A stretch of DNA of 63,067 bases from Gracilaria domingensis (Eukaryota; Rhodophyta; Florideophyceae; Gracilariales; Gracilariaceae). The notes below the pieces were generated by a model, which saw only the letters and a list, made by a program, of their open reading frames with translations, was not told the origin of the DNA and made no database searches. Shown one piece after another: positions 6,724 to 56,116 of this stretch. Position 1 is the stretch's first letter, and each line of letters begins with the position of its first letter. Made by a program: the position numbers and the translations under genes. The stretch covers positions 52,922 to 115,988 of the forward strand of contig VCMS01000316.1 in the NCBI GenBank assembly GCA_022539475.1, in the 5' to 3' direction.

Positions 6724-6733
6724 AGTCAGTGAC

Positions 6734-12862: not shown

Positions 12863-12870
12863 TCAATTTC

Positions 12871-24115: not shown

Positions 24116-24123
24116 CTAAAAAC

Positions 24124-27339: not shown

Positions 27340-28770
27340 AGCTTGAGTCTCTGTACTTCAGTCATGTGCCAGAAGCTCACCGTGATGAATTGCGGTAGAT
27401 GCTTCATGAGGTCGCGCCCATGTGCGATGGTTCACTCGGTAAGATTGGGATCACCCAACATCGGATCGAATTGGTGCCGAAGACTCGATCGATTTCACAA
27501 CACCCTTACAGGGCAGGACCAAGAGCTCGGGAGGAGGAAAAGACCCAAGTTCAGAAAATGTTCCGTGCAGCAGTCACATAGCCGACTCAGTCAGCAGGGG
27601 CATCGGTGGTGGTGCTCGCGCCCATAGTTGATGGGTCTCGGCGTTTTGACATCGGTTACCGCAAGCTAAACGCGGTAACGGTGAACAACGTGTACTCAAT
27701 CCCACGAATGGATGAACGAATCGATTTGTTGGGCCCCGCGAAATTATTCACAATTCTACACGCTAAATGAGGCTATTAGAAAGTTCCGATGAGGGCTGAA
27801 TAGCATGAAAAGACGGTCCTCACTTTTCACCAAGGACTGTACAGACCCAACCGGATGCCATTTGGTTTGACGAATGCGCCAGCCACATTGCAGCGAGCTA
27901 TGGATATTTTGCTATATTTTGGAAGACTTACCTTGGTTACCTGGACAAGATTATAGTATATTCCAGTAATCTGGACGAGCACTTGACCTACGTACGGGAT
28001 GTGATACAAATCCAGCGCGATTAAGGCGTTACAGTGAGGTTGAAAAAGTGCGAGTTCTTTACGAGCACCGTACAATATCTCGGACATATCATCCATTCAG
28101 GACGACTATTGATATACAAAGCGTCTGTCAAGTCCCTCAAGGAGGCAAAGCACCTTCGCATTCAAACCGAACTGCGATCTTTCATCGTCCTCTTTAATTT
28201 TTACCGTCGCTTCATCCAGCGCTTCGCGGACATTGCAGCTCCATTGAACGAAATCCTTCGAAACGGGCAGCCAGTCGAACTGGAAACGTTCAAAGACCGT
28301 GAACTTATGACTTTCTTCGAACTGGTGGAAGCGGTTACATCTCCACCAATTCTCTCCTTCCCTAGGGTTGGATTGCCATATGTTATCGACAGGGAGACGA
28401 GCAACTATAAAGTTTAATGCGCTCTTTTTCAGACCACAGTAGATGGAGAGCGGTTGCCAATTGGTTTTTGGTTGAGAAGCATCAACGTCGAAGAGAGGAA
28501 CTATTTGGTGTCTGAGTGGGAATGCTTAGCATTGGTCTGGGCACTACAGACCTCGCGCTCTTACCTTATGGGGACTCATTTTGTAGTTCATATGATCAAT
28601 CGGCCTTGCGCTGGCTGCTCCATATTGCAGAGCCCTCTGGCCACGTGATGCGTTGGGGACTGCGCTTGGCTAAATTCGTCTTCAAAATCAGGTATAAGAA
28701 GTGAATTCTGGAGACACAGGCGGACGTGCTTTCACGCTCGCATACAGCGGCGAAAGCTGAGCCAGTTGGT
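27340..28770 (+). pseudogene. RT-RNase H region of gypsy element F
   Basis: Recognisable RT blocks in several frames include IGITQHRIELVPKTRSISQH, RYRKLNAVTVNNVYSIPRM, RLKKCEFFTSTVQYLGHII, and the start of RNase H. The catalytic YLDD is read as YLDK at about 27938-27949, and the stretch 27550-28030 has many stops, so it is catalytically dead. Confidence 0.78.
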
Positions 28771-29580
28771 GACCTGGAGATACATTGCTCCCTTACCGAA
28801 GAGGACGAGAGCGATGTCAACGAAGACTCGGATGTTTGCGATCTTTACGACCCAGCTCTATCCGTTTCGAACGGGCCACCAGCACCTGGATTATTTGTGC
28901 CAATCATGCCGGAAGAACTCCTTCGGGAACAGCACACCGATCCGTTCTATGTTGAGATCCGTGCCAGTTTGAACGGTGGAGCTCAACTGCGCTTCCTCAC
29001 GACTGACCAGGGATTTCTAATCCAAACTGTTGGAGACAAGCCACAGATTGTGGTTCCTCACCCACTACAATCTCGAGTGCTGCATCTGTCGCATTATGCT
29101 AAACTGTCAGCCTACCCTGATGGACGGAAGTTGTATTCCATCTTAATGAAGAACTTTACGGGCCAGCCGAGGCTTTTGATGCGTATGAAACTGTTCTTGG
29201 ATGTTCTGCTTGGGCAAAAAAGCGAATAGAACTGCGGAAGCATTCCAAAAAGTTGGTACTATTCCCCACTGGGGCACCTCTTGCGTTTTCGCAAGTGATA
29301 TACTCGGCGAATTCATGCGCACACGCCGGAGACATCGGTTTCTACTCGTCATTACCCAACACGTTTCCAAGCCCCAAGTAACTGCCAAGTGAAGCGATTC
29401 AACCACAGTATACTTAACGCATTACACACGCTTGTTTCCGATCACCGGACGGAATGGGGTCAATACACCGATGCGGTGACATATGCATATAATACACAGG
29501 TTCATCGCAGCACTCAGATCTCGCCTGTCGAGTTCGTGCTATCACGCTTCCCATCTTTGGTGGTCATCAGGCCATAGCCA
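28770..29580 (+). pseudogene. Integrase of gypsy element F, core deleted
   Basis: The N-terminal zinc region is degenerate (LSHYAKLSAYPDGRKLY). The core begins (LVITQHVSKP) and then jumps at about 29377 to the end of the core (NCQVKRFNHSILNALHTL). Compared with G, about 75 codons that hold the second and third catalytic acidic residues are missing. The C-terminal part (YTDAVTYAYNTQVHRSTQ) remains. Confidence 0.75.
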
Positions 29581-29712
29581 ATCTTGGATAAGTTCCCCTA
29601 GCCCCGCCTGCACAGGGACGCCTGGAAAGGCTGGATTACGAAGATCATTCAAAAGGCTAGTCAGAATATCTCTAGCGCACAGGCCTTCTACAAGCGAAAT
29701 TTTGACACTAGA

Positions 29713-30570
29713 GTGCCAAAGCATGACCATCACATCAGGCAAGGTAGGTACGCCTTCCTACGGAAAGAATACTACAACCTCGATATGGAGAAGCGTCATA
29801 AGCTCTACGCTATCGCGTACGGTCCCTACCAGGTCATTTCAATTACCGAAAGAACGTTTGTCCTTGACATCGAGGGAGAGCACGAGCGTTCTTGGCGTGA
29901 TCGCGAAACGCCTGCACCAACCCCTGCTTCTCAAGAAACAGAACCGGAAACGCCGAAGACTGCTACAGCTACTGTGCAGCCCGCCGTCGACACGGAAACA
30001 CGCACCCATCTGTCAGTATTGCCGAATTCCAGTCGAGAACTTGCCAATTTGCAGGATAACCCGGAATCGCATCAGTCATTCTCTGCCGCCATTCATGTCC
30101 ACACGGGGATACTGGCCCCTCCGGAGATACTGACCACCGCCCCCGCCGTTACAACTGAGGAGGGGGAGGAGGCAGGTCGCTCTTTGGGGTTGCCGCCGTC
30201 ATCGACGGAGTCGCCTTCGCAGCCCTCAGCTTCGCAGGAACGCAACGCAACACACGACAAGAAGCCAAAGATCCAGGGCGAAGAGACTGCCATCCAGATT
30301 TTGCGGAACCCTGAAGAAGAATGTGCCACTTCGTCGAAGCAGCAAGCCGGAAGTCAGAAGGAAAGGAGAGTTGTTGAAGGACACCGTGCTGTTAGGGCAG
30401 ACCCGACTTCGGGAGATCTTGGAAACTTGTTAAGTAATGAAACCGCTAAGAACACGGATGCAATGGCCGATATGGCGAGTCGATATGCCACAGTAAGAGG
30501 GCAGCAGCCCTTTACCGTAAACCGGTGCACACCGTGCCAAATGTCTGTCTCCGTCGGCGATCCACCCTAA
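29713..30570 (+). pseudogene. Integrase GPY/F tail and Pro/Thr/Glu-rich extension of element F
   Basis: A 285-codon open frame holds the GPY/F module (AFLRKEYYNL, YGPYQVISITERTFVLDIEG) followed by a low-complexity acidic, Pro/Ser/Thr-rich extension of about 220 residues. G has a similar long extension after the same module, so a long disordered tail is a family trait. Confidence 0.72.
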
Positions 30571-30949
30571 GTGGAGGATTATAGTACACGAGCTGGGCAT
30601 GCGCCCGCTGTAAAGCTCGAGGCCGCTGAAAACGAAAACTCCGAGTTTGAATCGGCTGCGCACAACCGTACAAATGGCGCAGGCCTCGCACCCGCAGTGC
30701 GTGGTGAGCTTCGCCTCGGCACGTTCCACAGTACCACTCGCTGGCGCACTGCAATGCAGACCGTTCGCCCTCACGACGAAAAATCTCGCTTGGACGCCGG
30801 AAGTTCTCTACTCGAGAACACCCAAGCCGGGCCACATGCGAATGACACGGGAAGGAGGGCCAGAAATCTGGAAGTCTGAATGTCAGTGAGACACTGTCGT
30901 CACCAGGACGACCAGGCGTACAGAACGTACTTACGTCAAAACGGAAGTC

Positions 30950-31265
30950 GAACGTAAATGACACCCACGACGGAGAAGCCGAGAAGGACACCCCGAAAGA
31001 GGGCACAATGACCGAACCGCACACCGAGCGGCGTGTTTTCCATAGGGATTGTGTTATTGATCGTCTGTTAAGTCACTTCTACGCCTCTGACGGAGAGATA
31101 TTTTATCGAGTTCGTTGGTATGGCTACGCCCCCTCTAGAGAGACACACGAGCTCTTGAGCACTTATCTCGCTCTAAGGTGTTGCAGTTCCACCGTCGCAC
31201 ACGGACATCGATACCCACTACGCTGGAAAAGGACCAAGTGGGTTGACCACTCACATAACAAATGA
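30950..31265 (+). pseudogene. Chromodomain of gypsy element F
   Basis: The frame at 31008-31265 reads CVIDRLLSHFYASDGEIFYR followed by VRWYGYAPSRETHELL, which matches a chromodomain beta-sheet (V.R...YRVRW.GY...E.TW) with the final TWE changed to THE. It aligns with the chromodomain of G. In chromoviruses this module directs integration to particular chromatin. Confidence 0.75.
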
Positions 31266-31949
31266 GCATCGCCGTCTCAAATTGAATCAAACCGCTCAAC
31301 GTGGACGCTATAGAATTCAAATAAAAATGTTGCACACGCGGAAGCCACTCTGCCGTTGATAAGAAGGCAAAAGAAGAGGCGGGAAACTGGAGAACAAGAG
31401 TACGAAGACTTTGCGATAGGCGCTTTCTGCGGAAAGATATCTCTCGATTGGTAGGCTGATTGAAACAGCCTCCACCAAGATAAGATCCAATGAGAAGGGG
31501 GAGAACCAGAAGAAAATCTATGAGCCAAGCCAGCAAGGCTGGAGAAGTTTACCTCTAACTATAGAGTTCGGCCCCTAATCACTGGCGTCTACAAATGGCT
31601 CCAACGTCTCTACGGGAGTCCCGCATGGAAGGTTTAGACCGCCGATGACCCAGCACCTGGGGTGCTGCTACGGCTGGGATCTCCGGAGAAGTGCTGTCCC
31701 GCTATCGCTTGTAGTTCCGATTCGTCGGTCATCTTATCCAGGACCGCAACCCCCACCCCTCGAAAGAAGTCGCGAATGACCGCCGCTCGCGCAGTAAGGT
31801 TAGAACCGCTGCACCCAGCAGAAACCAAGACCTGTGCTCAGGGCGCAGTCGGCGCCGGAGCCGCTTCAGCGGGTGGGTCGACATTGGTGGCATCGTCGCC
31901 GTCTCCCATCACTACAGGGTCATCATCGTCCTCTGCCCCCATTAGGCTT

Positions 31950-33140
31950 CCCTAATCTATGACGCTTCCTCCTTCGGTAGGGTCATCACCGTCATCAACG
32001 ATGTACTCGAACCCACGCGGGTGCACTTGCGGGATGTGTCCTTCCTCTCTGCGGCGGCCAGCCGCTTCAGCGGGTCGAACTACCTCCCATATGCAAGGGT
32101 CAAGGTAAACTAAATCGGCGGCGTTGACGATACGTCCAGGAGATCGATCGGACTGCCGACGGACGCTTTCGGACACCTGGCTAGTACGCTTTTCGTCCCA
32201 ATGGATCTGGTCAACGACCCCCACCAACTCGGTGACCTCACGTGCATTGCGCACGGAGCCGAGTAATTTGGAAAGGTCTAGAGATCGGATGGCATGCCGG
32301 ATGAGCTCCGGAATAGGCCACAGCCAGTATAAATCTACGCCTCTACGAGGAAGAAAGCCGCAACGCGAACGCTCTACTCTGTTGCCAGGATATTCTATAG
32401 GCCGCGGGGCGTATTGGTCAGGAACTAAGACCCTATGTACGTTAGGTAGGTCGGAAGCTGGACATGACACCCTCGCGGGACCTCAACCGCAGGCCAGAAT
32501 GATGGCAGCGGCAGGTAGCGCCCACCATGGGAGTGTCTCTCAATTCGGTCTACCTCCGTGCATTGGTACGGCGCCAATATACCGAAACGTGAGCGCCATT
32601 TTTTCTCGAATCGGAGGCCTTCGTGAAACTGAGATCATGTTGGACGGCGGAGATACCAGAACTAGAGGCGAAGGGTGGAGCGAGCCCACAGTATCAACTA
32701 TGATTGAGGCTGCACGGCTTCCGAATATCGGTCGGTCTCATCCAATGAAATGGCCAAATGGTCACTGTAGCCGACTTCACCGAATGTTTGATATCGCGCC
32801 ACGTCGTACTGGTACTGTGCCGGAACCGGATGCCCGATCAGACCCCGGAAATGATGCGCGTACTCCATGCGGGCCATCTCGTTGCCATCAAACTGTCTAA
32901 ATTCGTTTCGACGTACGAACAGACAACTCGGAGTGACCGCGACGAGATCTATCCAATGCCATGACCGAGTGACATCGACATGAAGCCCACCAGGGAGTTG
33001 CCCGTCAACGGCGTACGAATCGACGAGCTCGGTATCCCGAACGGCTTCGACATCAAACCAGGGATTTTGAGCGAAGATAAAACTGTGCCGGTGAGGATCC
33101 CGGATGCGCTAACGCGTCCGCGCTGAGCCATCCACCCAGA
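31950..33140 (-). pseudogene. Antisense ORF remnant of element F, homologous to the antisense ORF of G
   Basis: On the strand opposite to gag-pol, between chromodomain and 3' LTR. Frames on the minus strand carry blocks that align in order with the plus-strand protein of G: near 33115-32960, RDPHR, PWF, AV, SYA and LPGGL; near 32790, YQTFGEV; then at 32470-31952 IRSLDL, DRSPGR, DLVYLDP and HPRGFEYI. Stops and frameshifts are present. No known domain. The match to G in sequence, order, position and relative strand is the evidence that this is a real element gene. Confidence 0.75.
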
Positions 33141-33486
33141 GAAGCTGAAATCTCAGGACTGAATCAATCCCACACAAGCGCAGCCCCAGCTTCAGTCGGA
33201 GCATGGTCTTGATGCCAGCAACGTGGCTGTGAAGCAGCCGACGACTGCGGAAGCGGCACAGAACGGAACAGCAGGTGCGACACTTGGATTCGAGCTGTCT
33301 AAGACGAAGGAGCGTTGAAAGCGTTGGAATCGTTGTTGGACATCGCCGATGTGTTGTAGAGGTGGATAGTTTTCATCACAGAAGTTGTGCGTGGTCCCAA
33401 ATAGTTGTCGGTAGACCAGTCTTGCGGGACCTTCTGATACCCTCATCACGAGGCGCATCAAACAGATAGCGTCAGTGCCCCAGCCT

Positions 33487-33499
33487 GAGAAGGGGGAAA
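33487..33499 (+). other. Polypurine tract of element F
   Basis: GAGAAGGGGGAAA directly precedes the TG of the 3' LTR at 33500. Confidence 0.82.
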
Positions 33500-34349
33500 T
33501 GTAGAGCAAAATTACCTGGATGGATATGCATTCAGGTGGTTTTCGTATATGGTTGATCCATTACCGGCTTCGACACCTCATATTATGAGAAGGCCTTAGG
33601 AAAATGGTCCCACTTTGGATTACGCCCAGAAAAGGTAGCATTGACGTATAAGTGTGCGGGACAGACCAAATGACCGATGCGCCGTGGCAAGCCTGCCACG
33701 GTCCAACACGTGTAGGGTAGTGGCCACTGTTGGTACAGTAGACAGTTAGACTCTTACACTAGTATTTTCAAGTGCCGTACGTAAATGACGGCACTAGCGG
33801 CCGCCGGGCGGGAAGTAAACTTCAAGGAGGCCTTTGGCTCGGACTTGTCACAGCTTTCGCCCGACTTCAGCCCAATTCTTGGGAACGTCGTGGCATATCC
33901 GGATTGGTCAACCACCTTTCTCTCCGAGAAGTGCATAACTCGTCGTTACGGCTCGTTTCTTGAATTCTTTCTGTTATTTTTCTTCCGTCATATGGCTACA
34001 CACTTCGTCCTGAGTATCATTACTGAACTAATTGCCTCGGGACATGTTCCTGCTTTCATGAGTCAGCGCGCCACAGTGCAGCTGGTTTGTTGATCCCTTG
34101 TTGCCCCATACCGCTGGGCTGGATACCCCTACTCGCTGTAGATCGCCGAACAGCTCGGATCTTACACCAATTCTTTCCCTTTTTACCTCCGACTGCACAC
34201 TCTTATCGGGGTCATCCCGGAATTACCATCGGCTCGTGTTGGCCGTATTGGATCTTCTTGCAGCATCTGCCCTCTCAGGGAGCAGGGCTCGAGCACCCTT
34301 GTAGATGTATGTCGGCGTCGCGGCTGGTCTTTTCCGCCTACAGTTTGCA
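33500..34349 (+). repeat. 3' LTR of gypsy element F
   Basis: 850 bp, TGTAGAGC...TTTGCA, clearly diverged from the 5' copy by many substitutions and lacking the 250-bp insertion. This divergence dates F as much older than G. Confidence 0.82.
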
Positions 34350-43375: not shown

Positions 43376-44145
43376 ATCGCCATAGAGATGCCTTCCACTA
43401 TGGTTCTTACGCCGAACATTTTCTGTCCAATTTGCCAGGGGTTCTTTCCATTTAACTGCTGAGTGGTGCCAAACTTTCTAAATCAATTTCACCCCCGAGC
43501 TTACACAACAAATGATCTACTGACAGAGACTGTGCCGCCACCGCTATTGGTCTGCCGCGACTACGACAACACGTCGGCGACGAGAGGCGCCACATACACA
43601 ACCTTGAACAGTAAGCAGACTTGCTGCATCAATCTTCGCATTTCAGCTAGTAATCTGTCGGCTGCGCCTGCCTCAGAGAGTTCGTACAGCAATACTCTCA
43701 ATTTTAAGACGAAAAACCTGGAACGGCTTGAACGGGGGGCTGCCAACGATTCTCACGGCGCTAAGACAATCACCATGTACAAACAGTTCGTCGACTGGCA
43801 CAATGTTATTAAATAGGAGAACGTTGAGCTCCAATGTAAGTACGACAACTGTCAGATTCAGTCCGAGACCCTGCCAACAGAGACCTCAGACGAACTACGC
43901 AGGCTGTTGAAGCGCTTTTCTGACGACAGTAATTTCTCTTTCATCCGGCAAGAACGCGATCAACTGAAGCAATCCTTCGAGCGAGAGCGCGAGGAAAAGT
44001 ACCAAACCAATTTGTGGAATTTGAGCTGTACAAAAGAAACCACACGGTCTTTGGAGATACGCAGCTCTTCGATGGGGCTAAAATAATCCGAAGAGAGAGT
44101 GAATGAAGGAAGAATAGCGGGTGCTGGGATCGGAACGGGATGAAG
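43376..44145 (+). pseudogene. Host-like coding sequence interrupted by gypsy element G (left part)
   Basis: The plus frame at 43463-43816, and the same frame past a TAG at 43814-43816 to about 44080, reads as a plausible protein: Ser/Thr-rich, then a charged helical segment with coiled-coil character (LRRLLKRFSDD, RQERDQLKQSFERERE). An upstream ATG at about 43390 gives a CPIC-containing start. Element G sits at 44146 with its TGAAG duplication, and the sequence resumes at 56117. No family recognised. Confidence 0.35.
44141..44145. other. Target-site duplication of element G, left copy (TGAAG)
   Basis: TGAAG directly precedes the left LTR (TGTGGGG...), and the same 5-mer at 56117-56121 directly follows the right LTR. 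Five bases is usual for Ty3/gypsy. Confidence 0.92.
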
Positions 44146-45119
44146 TGTGGGGCAAACTCGGGAGAGTGAAACCCACCAGACTGTCCGAAGGTCCGCTCTC
44201 GTGAGAGATGGCAGACCAGTGACAGAGCCCTCTGTACCACCGTAACTCGGTTGTAAGGCCTAAGTGGCAACTGGCTATACCTACAGAGGTGCTAGGCCAC
44301 GTCGTGAGGAAACGATGAGAAACTCCAGAGATGAGGTGGTATCGGCAACGATGAAACACGACCAACGACAGGTGTAGTCCCGAGAGGGAAAGCAACAGAA
44401 AACAACAACCAAACAACACCCACACGCGACGGGTAGGGCCTCCTCGGCACTGGGACCGGAGCGGGGCGAGATCCTCCAACGGTAATGCACGGGTTTCCGT
44501 AAACACGGCAAAACTCTATACAGAGTCGGATCACTTCGTAATCTAGTCCTATACCTCCTCGGTACGACCCTCAGGTCCCGACATCAACGACAGATGTTCC
44601 TCAAAGGTACCGAGAGGGTAGGACCACCGTAACCAGACGTGGCTATACTCGCGAGAGTGATAACCCACGTAGGCGGTTGGCGCCAGAGCCTCACTCGTGT
44701 AGAGTCCACTCAGGAGAGCGCTACTCGACAAAGAGTTCAGTTAGAAGTGCTCGGGTTGACTTTACAAAGGTGCTCGCGACGACGAGGTCGAGCTCACCTA
44801 ACTAGGTCTAAACTAACTATGTACACGTGGTGCACACCCGCAGGGGTCCGTACACGTGGCTAGCCCAGTGTCAGGCACCTCAGGTGCACTACCTATTGTC
44901 CCGTAATATGCACACACACGGTGGTGTAGTACACGCGTCCACCTAGCGGTATTGGCCAGCAATGGCAACCCTGATTACAGGTAACTGTGGGAAAGCCATT
45001 CCAAAAGTAACCGCCAAAATTGGGTCCAACTCATAACTCTTCGAGTGCATCCTCGTATCACTCCCCTGAGTATATGAGGCGCATCATCCTGATAACCACG
45101 CAAAATGCGTTGCTCTACA
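44146..45119 (-). repeat. 3' LTR of element G
   Basis: 974 bp, TG...CA ends, near-identical to 55143-56116. Differences noticed: C/T at 45066 and A/T near 45104. Identical short ORFs inside both copies are a by-product of the duplication. Confidence 0.95.
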
Positions 45120-45130
45120 TCTCCCCCTCC
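45120..45130 (-). other. Polypurine tract of element G
   Basis: On the element strand GGAGGGGGAGA directly precedes the 3' LTR. Confidence 0.9.
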
Positions 45131-45198
45131 TTAGAGCCGAGAACGACTTCGAGGCTGAAGTTTTGTGCGAAACGCATGTACGTAAGTACGTCACAGTC

Positions 45199-47053
45199 AT
45201 GAGCGGTACCAACTCTTCGGTTTCTATACCTCGCAAGCGCGATACACACTCAAGCGAACAGAGTATTCAAGTATCCGAACTCGATCACAGTACATCATCT
45301 GTAATTCCGATGAACCCGAATCAGTTTCCTCATCACCCGACGGGTCAGGCGAGCGCGTCGAACTACCCTCAGCCGGGTTCTGCGACGGCTCCACTGCCTC
45401 AGTCTCAACCGATGGTCCCGGTGAACGTTCCGTTATGGAATTCAGCGCAAGCGATGCCGCTGATGGCGAACCAAGCTGGTTGGATATCGAGGGAATCTCT
45501 CGCAGTACGCGATCCACTCCGTGATGGGTTTGCGTTCAGCCGTGCACCGTGGTTTCATCCGGTAGCTGTTAACGATGACACTCTCTTGGAGTCGTATGCC
45601 GAAAACGGCTTCCTACCGGGCGGTCTGCCGTTAGCGGTAGTGCAATCCCCAGAATGGAAAGTTCGTATAGCGATCGACCCGATGCTCCTCCGGTACGATA
45701 CCCGCGAGGGTGAGAACCTGAACACCGCGCGCGCGGAACACGCGAAGTTGGCGTACAAGAGACTCAGTCGAGTGCACCTCGAGCACCTCGTTCCACCGTC
45801 ATATGGGTTCGATACTCCGTTCTACCGTACTTTCGGTGAAGTCCGATATGGATACAACTTGGCGACGTTGGACCATGCGCGGTACGCTGGCGATGACCCG
45901 ACCACATCGAGGTTGATGTTGTGCTGGAATCGGCCGATACTCCGAGCGGAGTTCCGTTATCTTCGCAAGAACGCTTCCCAGGGTGGGTTCGTCAACCGCA
46001 TTCGGTTTGAGCGGAAAGCTCGTTCCCGTCATGGGTATCTGATTCCGTACCCGAATATCGAGACCGAGAGGTACAGACCGCAGGCCTTCGTTGGACGGTT
46101 CCCTCCTCTACCAGATTGGTGGCGTGATGTGGAGGTACCCAAAGGGTGTTTTGCAGAACTGCCTCCGTGCTTGAGTTACATCGGCTCCCGATTGATCAAC
46201 GATCCGCGTTCAGGATGGTGGGGTCTGGTAGCCGGCGAGTGGGCGGCACGCGTAGCAGCGTTTCTCCTCTGGGCAGGCTTACGACAACTACCGTGTTTGG
46301 TATATTCCGCCGATGCTTCGCAGCATTATCCGCTCGCTGGATTTGCACACTCCCTTGGGGTCCGAAGAGAACGTGGATGAGATCCATTACATCTTGGATG
46401 TTATCGATGGAATCGATTGGGAAACGGTGCCCCGTTCGCAGCGTGGGAAAGGTCCTCGTCGTCACTACGACCGCTCACCCGGTAGGAGACATCCCACCGC
46501 AGGAGATTTCGTGTATTACGACCCATGGGAGGGTACGATGACGACTAGCGCGTATGCCGAGTGGGCAGCGAACCAGCCACGGTCGATTCCAGACAGTCAC
46601 CCCGTTGGGTTCATGTTCAGTGACAACTGGGTCGCCCCAGTAGATCTGGATGATCCGAACATGGATACCGGTGGAGAGGCGGCGGGAGCACTCGTCGAGA
46701 TGGGCCAGGAGTTGGTGAACGACCTACCGGCGGCGAATCAGGTGTTGCACGCCAGCGGCGGGGTACCCCAGGCTCCTGTGGGTTGGAATGTTCCGACTCA
46801 AGCGAGTGTTCCGGTGGTGAGTCCGGCCCCTGTAGCGGCTACCGTTCCTTCGGTCCTTCCGGCCCCGACAGCTCCGGTCGCTCCGGGAGATTCTCCGGCG
46901 AACATCGCGATGTTGCGCGCCAGTCTCCAGAACGCTGGAATTATCGTGCCCGATCATCTCACCACTATGGCAGGGATACTGGCTTACGCCGTTCCGCACC
47001 CTTCGCAGGGTCCCTCCGGTAGCGGCGGTGCCGGTCCCTCATCGGGGGTGTAA
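45199..47053 (+). CDS. Antisense ORF of gypsy element G (two overlapping frames), function unknown
   Basis: It lies opposite to gag-pol, between chromodomain and 3' LTR. From the ATG at 45199 (MSGTNSSVSIPRKR), 80 bp inside the LTR, 393 codons run to 46380. A second frame, open from 46256, continues to the stop at 47053 (265 codons). Homology to element F moves from the first frame to the second within the overlap, so the protein (about 615 aa) needs a +1 shift, an unseen splice, or correction of an indel. N-terminus: Ser/Pro/Gln-rich. Middle: aromatic/Arg-rich and probably globular (PWFHPVAV, YAENGFLPGGLPLAV, YRTFGEVRYGYNLAT, RIRFERKARSRHGYL). C-terminus: Pro/Ala/Val-rich low complexity. No signal peptide, membrane segment or known domain seen. 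Antisense LTR transcription would place it under separate control from gag-pol. Confidence 0.75.
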
Positions 47054-47439: not shown

Positions 47440-48225
47440 TTATCCCACCTGGGCTTGGTCCAGGTCGGACGGCAAGGCTGGCCGAGTGCGACGGTGGTAT
47501 GAAACGATCTTCGATCTAGATAGGTGCTCGACCGGCTCCATGGTGTCCTCCTCGGCGGAGTAGCCATACCATCGCACTTGGTACTGTACCGTCCCATCGG
47601 GGTCTACAACATGACGTACGATACGTTCGATCACGTATTCCTGCGGGTACACCTCGGTGTTTGACTGCTCTCCTTCACCCATTGTGGTTTCGTACCTTCG
47701 AGGGTGGCGAGGTGGTGGCCGGCTAACCTCTAGAGGGGTTCCTCTTGGACTTAACCAGTCAAGACTCACTAGGAGTTCCTCGCTGCGCGACAACTACAAC
47801 TTACGCCAGGAGCGTCCAATCTTCAACCTGAAGGTTCTTCTTGAAGTACTCTCCTTCTTGAGTCTGACGAGCTTCGGCTCGTTTTGGTTGAGCTTCGGAC
47901 CGTCCAACGGTAGCTTCGGGATTCTGAGCTCCCTCTTGCTATCCAGAAGGATCTTCCGTGCGACGGAGAGCGGGCAGGGTCTCGCTCGTGCGCCATGGAG
48001 GCGGATTGACCAATCACGGTGCATATCGCGGCCTTCTGGTTGGCCAGGCGATGGCACGTGTGAGCCACGAGTTACCCTAACAGGTGTCCGTTCGCCTACG
48101 GTTGGCGACCGTACATCGTGCACCGTGCACGTGTGGTACTCGCGCACGCGACTTACTGTCAGCAGTTCCCCGCGTCGGCGGTGCTTTCCATACGTCACCA
48201 CGTCACACAGCGTGTTACTCTGCAC
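47440..48225 (-). CDS. Basic segment and chromodomain of element G, split by an in-frame TAG
   Basis: One reading frame on the element strand, separate from that of pol. 48225-47797 encodes a highly basic stretch (about 143 codons, Arg/Lys/Ser-rich, no ATG at its left edge), then TAG at 47794-47796, then 118 more codons. From the ATG at 47682 (MGEGEQSNTEVYP) a canonical chromodomain follows: YVIERIVRHVVDPDGTVQYQ, VRWYGYSAEEDTMEPVEHL. It could be a stand-alone chromodomain protein started at 47682, or the C-terminus of pol reached by frameshift or splicing. Chromodomains normally sit at the integrase C-terminus, so the separate frame is unusual. Confidence 0.7.
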
Positions 48226-48374: not shown

Positions 48375-51300
48375 TTAACACCAGTCGGTAACATTGAGTT
48401 GATCTACCGCTTGCGGTTCTGCGTTCTCCGGAAAGCCCGGGTCTACAGATACTGTCTTCTCCGCTCTGCGGGTGATGACCTCACTCAGTTGTGGTGTTCC
48501 CGACGGGGTTACGTTATCCACAGCGGTGCGTACCCCCTGGGTGGGTCGTGTTGTTTCCAGCGCATTGCTCAACGAACTCGACGGAGTATCACCACGAGGT
48601 ACAGCGCCTCGGCGCACCACAACGCTATCGGTAGAGACCGCGAGATTGGTTGCGGTACCTTGCGACACAGTGTGACCGTGCGACGCCGGTGTAACGGGTT
48701 CCGTACTTTCTTCCCCCTCCTTAGGCGGTGGCACGGGAGCCACGATGTCCGGTGGGGGGTCAACTCTAGTTGAGTTTTTCTCTTCGTCTCCCGCAACGCG
48801 TTGTGCTACCCGCGTTGGTGATTCTAACTTCGGTAGATCCGATAAGCCGCCATCAGGGCGGAGAGTCGCAGGGCGCGAAGATACGACCTGTTCGTCCCCT
48901 GTAGCTTCACCCAGTTGGGTGTTAACGTGAACGTAGGGTGGTGGGGCCAGCGCGACACGGTCTAACGATATCCTTTCGTGGAGATTATTGATATCCAATA
49001 CTACGGCATCGTCCGTGACGGAAATAACCTTGTAGGGTCCTTCCGCGATAGGCGAGAGCTTGTGGCGGAGTTCCTTCTCCGGATTATAGTATTCTTTGCG
49101 GAGAAATGCCATATCGTCTGGTTTGACCTTTGGTAATGGGGTCTTAACCTTCGCATCGAAGTTGCGCTTATAAGCGGCCTGCGCCTTATCCATCGCTGTG
49201 CGAGCGACCGGTACCATTTTGGTTAACCAATCCTTCCAAGCCTTCCTGTATAACCCAACAGACGGGTACGTAGAAAGCGTTTCTTGAGCCTGGATTGCAA
49301 CCGGTGGCGGTACTCTTGACAATACCAACTCAAAAGGTGCTAGCTTCGTTACCCGGTGGACTTGGATGTTGTACGCATACGTAATAGCGTCCGTATACAA
49401 ATCCCAATCCTTAGGATGATCTGCCACATAAGATCTTAATGCATTTAGCATGGTAGGGTTAAATCGTTCTACCTGACCATTTGATTGGGGGTGGTAGGTG
49501 GTCGTAAATAGATTCTTGACACTCAAGATCCGACAGACGTCCTGGAAAAACTTCGACGTGAACTGTGAACCGTTATCTGATAATAGATGAACCGGTGGAC
49601 CGTACACTAAGACCCAGTGGGTAACAAAAGCTTGTGCAACCACGGTGGCCGTAATCCGTTTCAGCGGGACTGTCCGTACCAACTTAGAGAACCGATCGGT
49701 GATAACCAGAAGGTATCGATTACCTCTTGCGGTTCTGATCAATTCACCTAAGATATCGATAGCGATAAACTCCAAAGGAGACCGTGCTGGGAACAGCGTT
49801 AACTTCTTCGAGTACTTACGAAGTTTCACGTTATTCTTGGCGCACTCGATGCAAGAGCGTCGTACTGCGTAGCAGTCCAATGCCATTGACGTCAAGTAAA
49901 AATTCCTACGCAGGGTCAAGTATAGTTTTCGACCTCCTGGGTGGGCTCCTACCTTCACATAGTGTGTCATGACCAACACACGGTTTTGCAGCGAGTATGG
50001 GACCACAATTTGGGTATACGCTTCAACCAACCTAACCAGGTACCCCTGATCGTTAATCTGAAAAGGTATACGATCTCCTCCATTGAGACGAGCGCGAATT
50101 CGCGTACAAAACTCATCCGTTTGCTGTTCTCGGATCATCTCCTCGGGAGTGATGGGTACAAAAGATCCAGTCAAGGGATCCAACTTCTCAGAAGTGAGCA
50201 GGATGTCGTCACAGATGTCATCCGACAAAGATTCGACCCAACCTGCTTGTTCTTCCACCATGAAGCATGGTATGTCCAGATCGTCAACTGGTGCCGCTTC
50301 TGCATTTGTTCCCAAGCGGGAGAGTGCATCTGCCTGCAGATTCAACGTTCCTTTTTTGTACGTAACTGTGAAATCGAACTCCGATAACCTCAAGCGCCAA
50401 CGCATCAAGCGTCCTGATGGTTCCGAGATTTCCATGAGCCATCGGAGAGATGAGTGGTCCGTATGTACCGTAAAATGGTTGCCCATAAGATATGGCCTCA
50501 GTGTAGTTAGAGCCCATACAACGGCTAAGCACTCTTTCTCCGAAACTGAGTAGTTACGTTCGTGTACGTTCAAGGATCGCGACCAGTATCCAATTGGACG
50601 TCTCACGCCGTCTTCGGTGAGCTGAAACAGGGCGCAACCAACCTGGTGTGCACTGGCGTCAGTGTCTACTTCGAATGGAAGTCCTAGCTTAGGCAAAGCC
50701 AAGATTGGCCGTGACGTTACTGCGTCAATTAATGCCGAAAAGGCAGACGCTTCCGCGTCGCCTAGGGGTTCCAGTTGAACTGGTTGACCTTTTCTCAAAA
50801 GGTGGTTAAGAGGGGTCGCAATATCTGCGAAGTTCGGCACAAAACGCCGATATACATTACAAAGACCCAGAAAACTGCGGAGTTCCGTTTGTGTCGCAGG
50901 GTGTTTCGCTTCCTTCAGCGACTTCACGCGAACTGCGTCAACTGAGAGCTGTCCAGGTCGGATGATATGTCCTAGGTATTTGACAGAATCTGTGAAGAAC
51001 TCGCACTTCTTGAGTTTCAGCGTAATGCCCGCGTCCCTGAGGACTCTCATGACGTCCCGGACGTGTGTTAAGTGGTCAACAAGGTTATCGGAGAACACGA
51101 TGATATCGTCAAGATACACCAAGCAGGTCTTCCACTTGAATCGAGCCAAGAGGATATCGATAGCACGTTGAAACGTAGCCGGTGCGTTGGATAATCCGAA
51201 CGGCATTCGTTTAAACCGGTACAAACCTTGGTGGCACACAAAAGCAGTTTTGTCCTTATCCTTTTCACAGATCGGAACTTGCCAGTATCCCCAATTGGCA

Positions 51301-52118
51301 TCCAAGGCGGTGAACACTGTAGCACTCCCAAGCGAGTCAATGTATTCGTCCATCCTGGGTATGGGATAAACGTCTTTGACGGTGACCGAATTTAGACGAC
51401 GGTAATCAATACAGAATCGCCATGATCCGTCCGCTTTTGGAACTAGCACCACGGGTGAGGCCCAAGCGGATTGAGCCGCCTCTATGACGCCAGCGCGTAA
51501 CATCTTCTCAACCTGAGATTGCTCTTCTTCCCTAGCTTTGGGACCAGCCCGGTATGGGTGTTGGGAAATGGGGTTAGTACCTGGAAGTAGGTCAATACGG
51601 TGTTTCGTGATTCTAATTGTCCCGAGGGATCCATCCCACATGGGTGTGAACTCCCTCAACATTTCTCTTAGCTTATCTCTATGAGATTCAGGTACATGAT
51701 CAAAATTCAACTGTTCCAGTTCCTTGACAGGGTCTGTATCTTCCGTTCCTGGTGGCAACGCTTTACCCTCGGTGGGTGCCAGCGATTCGGTGACTTCGCT
51801 CGCCGGTGTAACCAATGCGGTAAAAGCGGTTTCCGCTGATCCCTCCCCCGCCTTAGCATCGGTTATACCGAGAACATCCGCAACGGGTATCTTCGTTGGT
51901 ACGATAGCAGCAGGGTGTGGGAGAGTGGTACCAAGGATTTGGTTTTTAGCTAACCACTGTCGGGTTGTTCCAAAGTTGGCGACCAAAACTCTGAATAGTT
52001 TGTAGAGTTCCACGGAGATTACTCCGTTTGCCAAAGCGAGTTGCTTCTGATCATACAATGATGGCAATGGTTGTACCACACGTAGACCAGACTGCTTAGT
52101 AGTTATGGTGACCCAAAC
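48375..52118 (-). CDS. pol of element G: reverse transcriptase, RNase H, integrase
   Basis: 1,247 codons open between the TAA at 52119-52121 and the stop at 48375. There is no ATG near the 5' edge, so expression probably depends on read-through from protease. RT: SPVVLVPKADGSWRFCIDYR, VFTALDANWGYWQVPI, FKRMPFGLSNAPATFQ, catalytic LVYLDDIIVFS. RNase H: VDTDASAHQVGCALF, then HTDHSSLRWL and QADALSR. Integrase: HY...HPGGRKLY...CIEC zinc module, core IAIDILGEL, LLSDNGSQF and HPQSNGQVERFN with the D, D, E residues kept, then GPYKVISVTDDAVVLDI (GPY/F module). A disordered Pro/Thr/Glu-rich tail of about 200 residues follows. All catalytic motifs are intact. Confidence 0.93.
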   Translation of the reverse strand, partial: VWVTITTKQSGLRVVQPLPSLYDQKQLALANGVISVELYKLFRVLVANFGTTRQWLAKNQILGTTLPHPAAIVPTKIPVADVLGITDAKAGEGSAETAFTALVTPASEVTESLAPTEGKALPPGTEDTDPVKELEQLNFDHVPESHRDKLREMLREFTPMWDGSLGTIRITKHRIDLLPGTNPISQHPYRAGPKAREEEQSQVEKMLRAGVIEAAQSAWASPVVLVPKADGSWRFCIDYRRLNSVTVKDVYPIPRMDEYIDSLGSATVFTALDANWGYWQVPICEKDKDKTAFVCHQGLYRFKRMPFGLSNAPATFQRAIDILLARFKWKTCLVYLDDIIVFSDNLVDHLTHVRDVMRVLRDAGITLKLKKCEFFTDSVKYLGHIIRPGQLSVDAVRVKSLKEAKHPATQTELRSFLGLCNVYRRFVPNFADIATPLNHLLRKGQPVQLEPLGDAEASAFSALIDAVTSRPILALPKLGLPFEVDTDASAHQVGCALFQLTEDGVRRPIGYWSRSLNVHERNYSVSEKECLAVVWALTTLRPYLMGNHFTVHTDHSSLRWLMEISEPSGRLMRWRLRLSEFDFTVTYKKGTLNLQADALSRLGTNAEAAPVDDLDIPCFMVEEQAGWVESLSDDICDDILLTSEKLDPLTGSFVPITPEEMIREQQTDEFCTRIRARLNGGDRIPFQINDQGYLVRLVEAYTQIVVPYSLQNRVLVMTHYVKVGAHPGGRKLYLTLRRNFYLTSMALDCYAVRRSCIECAKNNVKLRKYSKKLTLFPARSPLEFIAIDILGELIRTARGNRYLLVITDRFSKLVRTVPLKRITATVVAQAFVTHWVLVYGPPVHLLSDNGSQFTSKFFQDVCRILSVKNLFTTTYHPQSNGQVERFNPTMLNALRSYVADHPKDWDLYTDAITYAYNIQVHRVTKLAPFELVLSRVPPPVAIQAQETLSTYPSVGLYRKAWKDWLTKMVPVARTAMDKAQAAYKRNFDAKVKTPLPKVKPDDMAFLRKEYYNPEKELRHKLSPIAEGPYKVISVTDDAVVLDINNLHERISLDRVALAPPPYVHVNTQLGEATGDEQVVSSRPATLRPDGGLSDLPKLESPTRVAQRVAGDEEKNSTRVDPPPDIVAPVPPPKEGEESTEPVTPASHGHTVSQGTATNLAVSTDSVVVRRGAVPRGDTPSSSLSNALETTRPTQGVRTAVDNVTPSGTPQLSEVITRRAEKTVSVDPGFPENAEPQAVDQLNVTDWC

Positions 52119-52862
52119 TTAGGATTGCGCAGGGATTGCGATGGCATGAGCCACATGGAGCTTAGATGATACCGGGCTGACGGTTGGAACTTCCTGTGCA
52201 GCAGGGAGCGAGACGCGCTTGCGCGTAGCTCTCTTTAGCGGTTTCCTTACAATCGGTATTTCGGAACCATCATCCATGGTAACAACTCGAGCTCGAGGTC
52301 GAATCGCTTCAACAAAACGATCACAAAAGTCAGAACCCAGTATCACCGGTGCGGCAATGCTTTTGCAAACCATGATATCCACCTTAACCATACAGGTTCC
52401 TAATCGTACCATGAGAGGTATGTACCCAAGAGTACGCAACGGGTTATTGTTGGCATCTGCGATGTCCAAACCTGGACCATGACGAATTTCATCCCGTAGC
52501 GCGGGTCGCACCAACTCAAGGTGAATCAGGTTCGGTGCAGCTCCTGTATCCAACAGGGACAACTGTCGAACCATGAACTGGTTAAACAAGCCAAGATCGG
52601 CATAAACTTTGTAGTTTCTCTTGGCCATCACAAGAACTCTTTCCGGAATACGGAGATTACGGGACCGTATCCACGGACGACGTAGAACCGAAAGGTGTTC
52701 TGAGCTCACGTCAGTTGCAGCCGCTATCCTTGAAAGGATTCTAACAGCTGGGGAGCGAAGCTGTGACGCCTCGGGCGCCTTCAACTTCGGCTCGGAAGGC
52801 GTCCCTCTCGTAGGAGAAACTCCCGAAGTCAGTTTTTCTGAACGGGGCTCACCGAATTCGGT
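52119..52862 (-). CDS. Retropepsin (protease) region of element G
   Basis: The frame overlaps the end of gag in the -1 register (open from at least 52862) and ends at TAA 52119-52121. RNYKVYADLGLFNQFMVRQL leads to the active site LSLLDTGAAPNLI, and a second conserved block APVILGSDFCDRFVEAIRP resembles the hydrophobic-Gly-x-Asp/Asn-Phe segment of Ty3-type proteases. No initiating ATG is available near the start of the frame, so it is presumably made as a Gag-Pro fusion by frameshifting. Confidence 0.85.
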   Translation of the reverse strand, partial: TEFGEPRSEKLTSGVSPTRGTPSEPKLKAPEASQLRSPAVRILSRIAAATDVSSEHLSVLRRPWIRSRNLRIPERVLVMAKRNYKVYADLGLFNQFMVRQLSLLDTGAAPNLIHLELVRPALRDEIRHGPGLDIADANNNPLRTLGYIPLMVRLGTCMVKVDIMVCKSIAAPVILGSDFCDRFVEAIRPRARVVTMDDGSEIPIVRKPLKRATRKRVSLPAAQEVPTVSPVSSKLHVAHAIAIPAQS

Positions 52863-54898
52863 GCGTGAACTCCGTTCGGGGGGCCTAACTGAACCCCATG
52901 CGTGGGTACTTCGCCTTGAACCTGGTTCGAAGGTGCCTGTGCCGGAACGGCGGGCTGAGCATAAACCGGAACCGGTAATCCCAGTTCAGCTCTGGCCTTA
53001 TCATATTCCTTTCGTGGAACAGATTCCTTTTCCTCGGGTGGGAGGGCGTCGTAATACGCAATAATTTTCGGCCTGTGCGACGGCGGAAATACGCACTGCG
53101 TCGATACGTGACCTGGAAGGTAGCACTGGTAACACATGACCGAGGCCGGTTTGACGCGAGGGCGATTGTCCACTCGACGTTGTGGTGCTGTGTCCTTCCA
53201 CCCTGGACGGTTCAGACGCGACGAATTGTTAGCGTAAGGCAGCGGGGCTGCAGGCACCCGGACACTTTGGGTATACAATGCGGGGTCTTCTTCCGTGCTC
53301 GGAATCGAGGTTGACGGCAGGTCCGTAGATCCGTAAGAATCGGGGTTACTTCCGATGAAGAGGACGTTATCAGCATCACCGACAGCAGTTTCACGTCGCG
53401 AAACCGACATCGATGGTGACGAACTCTCCGCGAGTAGCGCTTTCGAGCGGCGCTGCCCCCGGTTGCGGGCTCGATACGTCTCTCCTTCCGCCTGGGCGTA
53501 ATTAACCAACTCTAGGTACGTCATTCGGCGTTTTTCCTCCCGTCGGCGAGCGACCAACGACCGAATGGTGGGGTCCAAACCATCAACAAACATGGTACAC
53601 CGCTCGTGTGCGGAATACACATTACCACATCGGTGAAACGCTTTGTTCAACCGCGTTGAATAAACCGTTTCAGATTCTCCACTCTTCTGTCTGGTGTCGC
53701 GAACAGCAAGAGCAGCGCTGTAAATTGCGTTGGAAGTCGCGTACGACCTGAGAAGGTAGTTCACGGCTTCCGGCCAACACGTGACTCCTCCTTCCGAGGC
53801 TCTCGAGGTTCCTCGAACTGAGTTGTACTGATCTTCCGCAGTCCCTGTTAGGAAGTACGGCAGTGCCACATATGCCTGTGCTTCACTTATACCGAGTATA
53901 TCGCCCTCCTGGACGAACCTGGCAAGGAAATCCAAGATAAGGATAGGATCTGTCCCCGAGAATTTCCTTGTTTCAAGGGTAACATTCAACCTTCGAATGT
54001 AGTCCTTCACCTTACCGGTTCCTCGCGAGGAGCGATTCGAAGTAACATCTTCCAACCGATAATAGCGGTACGACAACAGCTTTGTGTAGAGCGGGTCCGT
54101 CGGCTTTAACTCTTTGAGTCCCAAGTGGCGCCGTCCTTTCACGCGCCATCTCATCACTGCCTGAGTAGACTGCGTCGCTTTCGACCGTGTCGAACGTGAC
54201 CTATGACGGTTTTCATCACTATCAGATGAATCTGACGAACTGTCTTCAGTCATGCCGCTCGAGTCAGAGCGCGATGAATCCGAATCATAGTGAACTCGTT
54301 TTGGATGTCGACGTTTCTGCTTCACCGAACGATGGTCTTCATCTGCAGATGGATTTCCTTGAGGAACCTGTGCGTCCACAGCTTCATCCATACGGATTGT
54401 ATCCTCCAGCGTTTCCAAGCGCGAACGAATTCGACAGATATCGGTGCGCATTTCCTCGACAAATGCCCGGTACTCCGTGACGAAGACGTCTGGGGTACCC
54501 AGATTTTCCATACTGGAATTCACGTCCCTTCTCAGAAGACGTAAGTCTCCTGAGACATCCCTCACCTGGGCATTATCAACCTGCGTCGTCAACGAGGTAA
54601 TATCCTGTAGGAGTTCCACGTGAGCAGCGTGATTAATATCCAAGCGGGATTCCAACCTAGCCAACTCGGCTACGGTAGCAGCGTTAGGATTAACCATGGA
54701 TGGTGTCTCAACGACGGGTTGAGCAGAACCCACATTTCCCTTGGGTGCTTCCGTAACTGAACGCGTTCTCCGGGGGCGGGGTACGACCTCAAGAGGTTGC
54801 GCCTCATCTGGGATAGACCGGGATGTCGGTGCAACGGGTGGAACCGCAGCTGACGACCGCGCTGAACCAGCTCGAGAACCTCGAGGCGGTTGCGGCAT
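52829..54898 (-). CDS. gag of element G
   Basis: 689 codons from the ATG at 54898 (MPQPPRGSRAGS); an upstream in-frame ATG at 54967 is possible. N-terminal basic/Pro-rich region, a helical heptad-like segment (LARLESRLDINHAAHVELLQ), an Asp/Ser-rich stretch with Arg/Ser repeats, then the capsid-like block shared with F and J (SYRYYRLEDVTSN, DPILILDFLARFVQEGDILG, GVTCWPEAVNYLLRSYATSN, FVDGLDPTIRSLVARR). Near the C-terminus is a CCHC zinc knuckle, CYQCYLPGHVSTQC. Forms the virus-like particle and binds element RNA. No stop or frameshift seen. Confidence 0.9.
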   Translation of the reverse strand: MPQPPRGSRAGSARSSAAVPPVAPTSRSIPDEAQPLEVVPRPRRTRSVTEAPKGNVGSAQPVVETPSMVNPNAATVAELARLESRLDINHAAHVELLQDITSLTTQVDNAQVRDVSGDLRLLRRDVNSSMENLGTPDVFVTEYRAFVEEMRTDICRIRSRLETLEDTIRMDEAVDAQVPQGNPSADEDHRSVKQKRRHPKRVHYDSDSSRSDSSGMTEDSSSDSSDSDENRHRSRSTRSKATQSTQAVMRWRVKGRRHLGLKELKPTDPLYTKLLSYRYYRLEDVTSNRSSRGTGKVKDYIRRLNVTLETRKFSGTDPILILDFLARFVQEGDILGISEAQAYVALPYFLTGTAEDQYNSVRGTSRASEGGVTCWPEAVNYLLRSYATSNAIYSAALAVRDTRQKSGESETVYSTRLNKAFHRCGNVYSAHERCTMFVDGLDPTIRSLVARRREEKRRMTYLELVNYAQAEGETYRARNRGQRRSKALLAESSSPSMSVSRRETAVGDADNVLFIGSNPDSYGSTDLPSTSIPSTEEDPALYTQSVRVPAAPLPYANNSSRLNRPGWKDTAPQRRVDNRPRVKPASVMCYQCYLPGHVSTQCVFPPSHRPKIIAYYDALPPEEKESVPRKEYDKARAELGLPVPVYAQPAVPAQAPSNQVQGEVPTHGVQLGPPNGVHAPNSVSPVQKN
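52832..52838 (-). promoter_or_regulatory. Candidate -1 frameshift site at the gag/protease overlap
   Basis: On the element strand GAAAAAC, read in gag as CAG AAA AAC, is followed at once by the gag stop TGA (52829-52831), and the protease frame lies at -1. The heptamer differs in its first base from the classic A-AAA-AAC site. A downstream pseudoknot was not assessed. Confidence 0.5.
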
Positions 54899-55121
54899 AC
54901 TGAAAACCAGTAAGCGATCTGATCCAGATGATCCAGTTAAACTCGTACACGAGTCTCCAAAGAACAAGAAAACTCAATAAACCTTCTCGGCAAACTACCA
55001 CGTCAGCGGTTCACGTTCAAAAGTTGTCAACCTCCAAAACTCTAAAGAGTTCCCTAATCGTTGTCAGAAGACGGTGATCCGTCAACAATCAAGTCAATTC
55101 CACGACAGTGTCCTAAAACGG

Positions 55122-55139
55122 TTCTAAGTCGGGAGACCA
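55122..55139 (-). other. Primer-binding site of element G
   Basis: On the element strand TGGTCTCCCGACTTAGAA begins 3 bases inside the 5' LTR. It is complementary to a tRNA 3' end TTCTAAGTCGGGAGACCA. The CGGGAGACCA end is that of eukaryotic tRNA-Tyr; the exact host tRNA could not be checked. Confidence 0.82.
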
Positions 55140-55142
55140 CTT

Positions 55143-56116
55143 TGTGGGGCAAACTCGGGAGAGTGAAACCCACCAGACTGTCCGAAGGTCCGCTCTCGTG
55201 AGAGATGGCAGACCAGTGACAGAGCCCTCTGTACCACCGTAACTCGGTTGTAAGGCCTAAGTGGCAACTGGCTATACCTACAGAGGTGCTAGGCCACGTC
55301 GTGAGGAAACGATGAGAAACTCCAGAGATGAGGTGGTATCGGCAACGATGAAACACGACCAACGACAGGTGTAGTCCCGAGAGGGAAAGCAACAGAAAAC
55401 AACAACCAAACAACACCCACACGCGACGGGTAGGGCCTCCTCGGCACTGGGACCGGAGCGGGGCGAGATCCTCCAACGGTAATGCACGGGTTTCCGTAAA
55501 CACGGCAAAACTCTATACAGAGTCGGATCACTTCGTAATCTAGTCCTATACCTCCTCGGTACGACCCTCAGGTCCCGACATCAACGACAGATGTTCCTCA
55601 AAGGTACCGAGAGGGTAGGACCACCGTAACCAGACGTGGCTATACTCGCGAGAGTGATAACCCACGTAGGCGGTTGGCGCCAGAGCCTCACTCGTGTAGA
55701 GTCCACTCAGGAGAGCGCTACTCGACAAAGAGTTCAGTTAGAAGTGCTCGGGTTGACTTTACAAAGGTGCTCGCGACGACGAGGTCGAGCTCACCTAACT
55801 AGGTCTAAACTAACTATGTACACGTGGTGCACACCCGCAGGGGTCCGTACACGTGGCTAGCCCAGTGTCAGGCACCTCAGGTGCACTACCTATTGTCCCG
55901 TAATATGCACACACACGGTGGTGTAGTACACGCGTCCACCTAGCGGTATTGGCCAGCAATGGCAACCCTGATTACAGGTAACTGTGGGAAAGCCATTCCA
56001 AAAGTAACCGCCAAAATTGGGTCCAACTCATAACTCTTCGAGTGCATCCTCGTATCACTCCCTTGAGTATATGAGGCGCATCATCCTGATAACCACGCAA
56101 ATTGCGTTGCTCTACA
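55143..56116 (-). repeat. 5' LTR of element G
   Basis: 974 bp, TG...CA ends on the plus strand, near-identical to 44146-45119, followed by the TGAAG duplication at 56117-56121. Confidence 0.95.

What the first reader, a model, noticed from the sequence alone, without database searches (positions are those of the whole stretch)
45199..47053. Conserved antisense gene inside a gypsy/chromovirus family
Seen: element G carries about 1.85 kb of plus-strand coding sequence opposite to its minus-strand gag-pol, between chromodomain and 3' LTR. The old, plus-strand element F carries minus-strand sequence in the same place (31950-33140) that matches it block by block (PWF, SYA, LPGGL, TFGEV, IRSLDL, DRSPGR). 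Both elements were read independently and lie on opposite strands, so the match is not a shadow of pol. Known: antisense ORFs at the 3' end have been reported in a few plant gypsy lineages, and some retroelements carry env-like genes there, but none that I know resembles this protein. Inference: a conserved accessory gene (regulator, structural or host-interaction factor) expressed from antisense LTR transcription.
Basis: partly seen in the sequence, partly recalled or inferred. Interest (0 to 1): 0.88.

Follow-up and report, generated by a model that had tools for sequence, protein, structure and literature searches.

The report
Antisense accessory gene in seaweed retrotransposons
In what is likely a red seaweed genome, an extra protein gene found whole or broken at 271 places lies on the opposite strand of retrovirus-like mobile elements and has been conserved by natural selection; its protein is predicted to have an unfamiliar fold and would likely help the elements control or complete their own movement.

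Summary
Element G (LTRs 44146-45119 and 55143-56116) carries a plus-strand gene opposite its gag-pol, 45199-47053, broken in this copy by one frameshift near 46270. Of 40 other G-type copies read, 22 have it as one open 617-codon frame. Old element F carries a decayed copy of another lineage. At least 271 genome places hold the gene or part of it. Of 84 with a reverse transcriptase within 6.5 kb, 80 have it antisense and 3' of pol, none on the same strand. The most diverged copies give dN/dS 0.16-0.33 in its frame; other frames give 0.76-2.19 or are rich in stops. Relatives occur in Gracilariopsis chorda and Agarophyton chilense. Family searches gave only weak matches, and a confident predicted fold found no solved relative. 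The arrangement is known (antisense 'aORF-3R' genes of plant Grande, RIRE2, Retand and fungal Boty). The protein family matches none that I could search, and I found no red-algal case in the papers searched. Expression and function are untested.

The parts
44146..45119 (-). 3' LTR of element G (974 nt, TG...CA); its antisense strand likely carries the promoter of the accessory gene (inferred)
44141..44145 (.). target-site duplication TGAAG, left copy (right copy 56117-56121)
45120..45132 (-). polypurine tract next to the 3' LTR; the antisense ATG lies 79 nt from the LTR edge; a like edge and C-rich tract lie 53-79 nt before the ATG in the flanks of L040, L062 and L051 (edges there judged by likeness, no LTR pair aligned)
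45199..46278 (+). antisense accessory gene, first 360 codons (N terminus predicted disordered, most of the conserved core)
46262..47053 (+). antisense accessory gene, rest (end of core, linker, C-terminal hairpin), in another frame after one frameshift near 46270
47440..47793 (-). small separate chromodomain ORF, convergent with the accessory gene
   Evidence: PF00385 E 2.1e-11
48375..52079 (-). pol of G: RT, RNase H, integrase
52119..52784 (-). protease-like ORF (weak, E 0.033, under cut-off)
52829..54967 (-). gag-like ORF, 712 aa, with a CCHC motif read by eye (no gag family matched)
55120..55142 (-). primer-binding-site region next to the 5' LTR (sense strand begins AAGTGGTCTCCCGACTTAG); the tRNA was not identified
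55143..56116 (-). 5' LTR of element G, two mismatches to the 3' LTR
23020..34336 (+). old element F (LTR blocks 23020-24101 and 33500-34336; 82.7% alike in the main block, 74% in the second)
31640..33442 (-). F's decayed antisense gene, P0002/L040 lineage, in at least three frame blocks
31008..31265 (+). F's chromodomain-like ORF (by eye, no family search), convergent with its antisense gene

Best explanation
It is a conserved protein-coding accessory gene of chromodomain-bearing Ty3/gypsy retrotransposons of a genome that is likely red-algal, lying antisense between pol and the 3' LTR, and it is likely transcribed from a promoter on the antisense strand of the 3' LTR to make a predicted non-enzymatic factor that would regulate or assist the element's own retrotransposition. 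SHOWN: the gene, its place and orientation in G and F, its orientation against RT at 80 of 84 places, its frame-specific purifying selection, and its relatives in other lineages of the genome and in Gracilariopsis chorda and Agarophyton chilense. PREDICTED: a disordered N terminus, one globular core of about 380 residues, a low-complexity, usually acidic linker and a C-terminal two-helix hairpin. INFERRED: transcription starts in or near the 3' LTR edge, because the first ATG of the frame lies 53-79 nt from the LTR edge (or its look-alike) in the four lineages read. INFERRED: the protein is not an enzyme, because the 12 invariant columns among 25 aligned rows hold no His, Cys, Lys, Asp or Ser. 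UNTESTED: that it acts on the element's transcription or nuclear complex, as proposed for plant antisense ORFs.
For: Open 617-codon frame in 22 of 40 other G-type copies read and open 599-codon frame in 10 of 12 P0002-type loci (many of these were top-ranked by protein score). 80 of 84 ORF places with an RT within 6.5 kb are convergent, 4 divergent, 0 on the same strand. 23 of 51 places of the L051 search have a chromodomain hit within 1.5 kb, all 23 convergent at 379-510 nt; two G-type places that I added by hand are convergent too. dN/dS of 0.26, 0.16 and 0.21 for the three most diverged G-type copies (dS 0.28-0.58) and 0.24-0.33 for the L051 lineage. In the control the gene's frame gives 0.17-0.33; four other frames give 0.76-2.19; the mirror antisense frame gives 0.23-0.41 but with 21-31 stops. 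24 relatives by protein search. Tree: own L040 with G. chorda P0002 (100/100) and own L062 with G. chorda P0006 (99/98), so two lineages span two host species. Fold: core pLDDT mostly above 90, hairpin up to about 91. LTR edge or look-alike and polypurine tract 53-79 nt before the first ATG in four lineages.
Against: No transcript, peptide or promoter evidence was available. No nuclear localisation signal recurs (6 of 25 rows show a loose match) and the core is near neutral, net charge -8 to +12, so direct DNA binding by the core is not suggested. 57 of 82 chromodomain hits that I compared (of 150 found) had no listed ORF within 1.5 kb; the searches are capped, so I cannot say whether some elements lack the gene and move without it. 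Five G-type copies with few differences give dN/dS of 0.96 or more (L031, L032, L033, L038, L069), three have no synonymous difference to the reference (L017, L018, L036; the last two with 1 and 3 other changes), and L067, L068 and L070 give 0.43-0.59. Most loci were picked by protein score, which biases their values down. 0 of 38 L062-type places had an RT within 6.5 kb among the 150 scored; their link to an element rests on a chromodomain-like ORF (by eye, no family search) and an LTR-like edge beside L062. The pol control was uninformative.
Confidence: 0.6

Rival explanations
1. The protein is a structural or particle component (a second coat-like or Gag-partner protein) and not a regulator; antisense placement only sets its dose and timing.
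For: Invariant columns without a catalytic-looking pattern; a compact predicted core and a C-terminal hairpin that could oligomerise (weak match of G's hairpin piece to the Sas-5 implico domain, E 0.0089, under cut-off).
Against: The element has its own gag-like ORF with a CCHC motif (by eye); no structural match to solved or viral proteins.
Confidence: 0.2
2. The protein protects the element from RNA silencing that its own convergent transcription would provoke (a silencing suppressor).
For: The gene lies wholly within the element and opposite to gag-pol, so double-stranded RNA is expected if both strands are transcribed (geometry; the possible siRNA from antisense transcripts is discussed in PMC7264820, parts 1-2 read).
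Against: No match to any known family; no small-RNA data; no evidence that both strands are transcribed.
Confidence: 0.12
3. A captured host gene or a nested foreign transposon that hitchhikes without serving the element.
For: Origin unknown; most of the 271 places were not shown to lie in an element (RT seen near 84).
Against: Position next to an LTR edge and polypurine tract, or look-alikes, in four lineages, purifying selection, at least two lineages shared with G. chorda, no transposase match.
Confidence: 0.05
4. Only the antisense RNA matters; the open frame is incidental.
For: Antisense non-coding transcripts exist in other retrotransposons (PMC7264820, parts 1-2 read).
Against: Selection acts on codons of one frame; protein similarity is kept at roughly 30-50% identity across most lineages.
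Confidence: 0.03

Closest known systems
Antisense additional ORFs between pol and 3' LTR (aORF-3R) of plant Ty3/gypsy elements: maize Grande gene23, rice RIRE2, Silene Retand (TRP28, PF04195), bean PvRetro13 (PMC7264820 parts 1-2 of 3 read; PMC11963269 abstract and passages read)
   Same: Same place, same orientation, long ORF kept in many copies, function unknown.
   Different: Different protein: no TRP28 or other convincing Pfam match in any of 25 rows. Host is likely a red alga, and the elements carry chromodomains, whereas Retand is a non-chromovirus lineage. The plant proteins themselves were not fetched or compared.
Boty of Botrytis and Sclerotinia (fungal element with an antisense ORF; named in PMC7264820, original paper not read)
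   Same: Antisense ORF between pol and 3' LTR outside plants.
   Different: Its protein was not compared here.
HTLV antisense genes (HBZ, APH-2), as described in passages of PMC11963269 and in PMC7264820
   Same: Antisense gene at the 3' end of a retroelement; an antisense promoter inside the 3' LTR is reported for HTLV.
   Different: The HTLV proteins were not fetched or compared. Only the gene arrangement is alike.
Env-like genes (PMC7264820) and ORF3 genes of bdelloid LTR retrotransposons (PMC5408684, abstract and section list seen)
   Same: Extra gene 3' of pol.
   Different: Env-like genes are described as sense-oriented; this gene is antisense.

Membership tests
aORF-3R class (antisense additional ORF between pol and 3' LTR) | lies between pol and the 3' LTR | tested here: met
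   anatomy of G and F; median RT gaps of 4.0-4.7 kb in three sets
aORF-3R class (antisense additional ORF between pol and 3' LTR) | antisense to gag-pol | tested here: met
   80 of 84 convergent, 4 divergent, 0 same strand
aORF-3R class (antisense additional ORF between pol and 3' LTR) | present in most copies of a family, conserved like an element protein | tested here: inconclusive
   at least 271 places and dN/dS 0.16-0.33 in the most diverged copies, but searches were capped, 57 of 82 chromodomain hits compared had no listed ORF near, and the pol control was saturated
aORF-3R class (antisense additional ORF between pol and 3' LTR) | antisense transcript from its own promoter | not testable with these tools
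   no RNA data
Retand TRP28 proteins | PF04195 domain | tested here: not met
   not among the families matched by any of 25 rows at E up to 10 (HMMER's filters drop most weak matches)
Env-like sense genes | sense orientation | tested here: not met
Chromovirus Ty3/gypsy elements | RT, RNase H, integrase and chromodomain | tested here: met
   RVT_1, RT_RNaseH, rve, Chromo in G; the chromodomain is a separate small ORF; no pol tree was built
HBZ-like regulators | bZIP regulator acting in the nucleus (feature recalled) | not tested
   no bZIP family was reported for any of 25 rows in the Pfam scan; localisation untested

The most novel reading that the evidence does not exclude
A new protein fold, evolved inside red-algal retrotransposons, is encoded against the grain of its own genome and shields the element from the double-stranded-RNA silencing that its convergent transcription provokes: a self-protecting antisense gene shared by several element lineages across Gracilariaceae.
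Probability: 0.1. Interest if true: 0.88.

Novelty: new variant of a known kind. Interest (0 to 1): 0.62.

Why it matters
Antisense genes at the 3' end of LTR retrotransposons have been known in plants and a fungus for years without an assigned function (PMC7264820). Here a family that matches no searched library sits in the same place in likely red-algal elements, in hundreds of copies, with codon-level selection and a confident predicted structure. That suggests a repeated solution to a shared need of such elements. It offers a system rich in natural variants for asking what these genes do, and a protein family that, where named, is called only 'hypothetical' or 'unnamed'.

Tried and rejected

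Papers: PMC7264820 parts 1-2 of 3 read; PMC11963269 abstract, outline and passages; PMC5408684 abstract and section list; PMC8282616 and PMC10388701 passages. The statement that I found no red-algal case rests on the listings in an open-licence library; the Gracilaria domingensis genome paper did not appear in them and was not read.

Full report
What the window is. The window is C316:52922-115988 of a 77.9 Mb assembly in 680 contigs. The named relatives of the protein come from the red algae Gracilariopsis chorda and Agarophyton chilense.

Anatomy of element G. Two LTRs of 974 nt (44146-45119, 55143-56116) with two mismatches, flanked by the target-site duplication TGAAG, enclose a minus-strand element: gag-like ORF, protease-like ORF, pol with RT, RNase H and integrase, and a small separate chromodomain ORF. 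On the plus strand, between the chromodomain ORF and the 3' LTR, lies the gene of the finding. Its first ATG is at 45199, 79 nt inside the LTR edge, and it ends at 47053. In this copy one frameshift near 46270 splits it. In 22 of 40 other G-type copies read it is one open frame of 617 codons (20 of the 28 loci L011-L038, which were picked by protein score, plus L052 and L058; L010, L054 and the eight copies L063-L070, picked for their divergence or low rank, are broken).

Element F. F (23020-34336) is older: its LTRs are 82.7% alike in the main block and 74% in a second block. Its antisense gene runs from about 33442 to 31640 in at least three frame blocks and belongs to another lineage: main blocks 78% and 65% identical to own-genome L040, 65% and 50% to G. 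chorda P0002, 39% and 31% to G's (L016). Its first matched residues lie about 58 nt from F's 3' LTR.

How widespread. Protein searches of the whole genome gave 106 rows with G's protein (77 without a stop), 153 rows with P0002 (77 main places, 57 without a stop), 75 with L062 and 73 with L051 (lower bounds, because only the best candidates are scored). One search took 105 of 106, 77 of 153, 51 of 73 and the first 38 of 75 rows, 271 places in all, none overlapping; second pieces and G-type places already counted were left out, and the other L062 rows. Further groups appear with open frames of 542, 608, 651 and 701-703 codons.

Orientation. Against the 150 best RT places, 84 of the 271 ORF places had an RT within 6.5 kb: 80 convergent (ORF antisense and 3' of pol), 4 divergent, 0 on the same strand. 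I take the 4 for neighbouring elements but did not check. None of the 38 L062-type places had one of these RTs near; beside L062 itself lie a chromodomain-like ORF on the opposite strand (by eye) and an LTR-like edge with a C-rich tract. Chromodomains were compared, with 82 of the 150 hits, chosen by hand, mainly those in small open frames. Of the 51 places of the L051 search, 23 had one within 1.5 kb, all convergent at 379-510 nt; two G-type places that I added because a hit lay beside them were convergent too (1111 and 1198 nt from the matched part). 57 of the 82 had no listed ORF near; given the caps, this leaves open whether some elements lack the gene.

Selection. Each copy was aligned to one real reference copy and counted by Nei-Gojobori (38 G-type rows, 11 P0002-type rows, 6 L051-type rows of which L053 and L073 are the same place). 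Left out: L027 and L030 near contig edges, duplicates of places already in, and the reference copies. The three most diverged G-type copies (L063-L065, dS 0.28-0.58) give dN/dS 0.26, 0.16 and 0.21; the L051 lineage gives 0.24-0.33. The other G-type rows mostly lie between 0.1 and 0.5, but five give 0.96 or more on few differences, three have no synonymous difference, and L067, L068 and L070 give 0.43-0.59. P0002-type rows give 0-0.15. Rows chosen by protein score are biased down; the diverged rows are the better test. Reading the alignments of eight copies in all six frames gives 0.17-0.33 in the gene's frame and 0.76-2.19 in four others. The mirror frame on the sense strand gives 0.23-0.41, as expected because third positions coincide, but it holds 21-31 stops. 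The gene therefore codes for protein on the antisense strand.

Relatives and tree. Three protein searches gave 24 relatives: two named G. chorda, four named A. chilense, the rest unnamed; none carries a precomputed Pfam domain. A tree of 21 rows (seven rows dropped) joins own L040 with G. chorda P0002 (100/100) and own L062 with G. chorda P0006 (99/98), so at least two lineages span two host species, by descent or by transfer.

Structure. With 25 sequences AlphaFold2 predicts a core (about residues 82-465 of P0001) mostly above pLDDT 90, a disordered N terminus, a low-complexity linker that is usually acidic, and a C-terminal hairpin of two helices at up to about 91. Foldseek against the PDB (both models) and viral models (first model), and VIA-align on 19 chains, gave no match. 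Invariant columns among the 25 rows are M, L, F, R, E, R, R, G, R, E, P, W, which does not look like an active site. Family searches gave only weak matches.

How it likely works. The first ATG lies 53-79 nt from the LTR edge, or from a look-alike edge, in the four lineages read, which makes antisense transcription from the 3' LTR the simplest source of mRNA (inferred; no RNA data). The protein is likely a non-enzymatic accessory factor. By analogy with plant aORF-3R proteins, for which a nuclear or regulatory role is proposed (PMC7264820, parts 1-2), the best guess is that it regulates transcription or assists the nuclear stages of retrotransposition. The rivals are a structural partner of Gag and a silencing suppressor.

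Known or new. The arrangement is the known aORF-3R class (Grande, RIRE2, Retand, PvRetro13, Boty). No row matched the TRP28 domain of Retand. I found no report of such a gene in red algae in the library searched. Verdict: a real, conserved gene; a new variant of a known kind.

Noticed in passing
47440-47793 (minus); also L040:3453-4010 minus, L062:3551-3775 minus, L051:492-791 plus: The chromodomain sits in a small ORF of its own, separate from integrase (family match in G and L040; by eye in L062 and L051); whether it is spliced, frameshifted or free is unknown.
   Followed up: partly
contig C144 of the same genome, RT at 60656, 72246 and 83836: Three RT copies with identical scores spaced exactly 11590 bases apart, as in a tandem array of one element; their antisense genes at 65361, 76629 and 88541 carry stops.
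   Followed up: no
window 1-12884: Large inverted repeats: 292-2276 against 10890-12884 (92-98%), and 3778-4562 against 6744-7529 (99%), nested in each other.
   Followed up: no
window 36069-36483: Fragment 78% alike to G's protease-like region (52356-52769), outside F: likely remnant of a third related element.
   Followed up: no
C-terminal hairpin of the family (P0001 residues 523-560): Weak matches of single C-terminal pieces to Ish1 and Sas-5 implico hint at a small helix-loop-helix module of possible binding function; E3_binding matched 3 of 25 rows, position not seen.
   Followed up: partly
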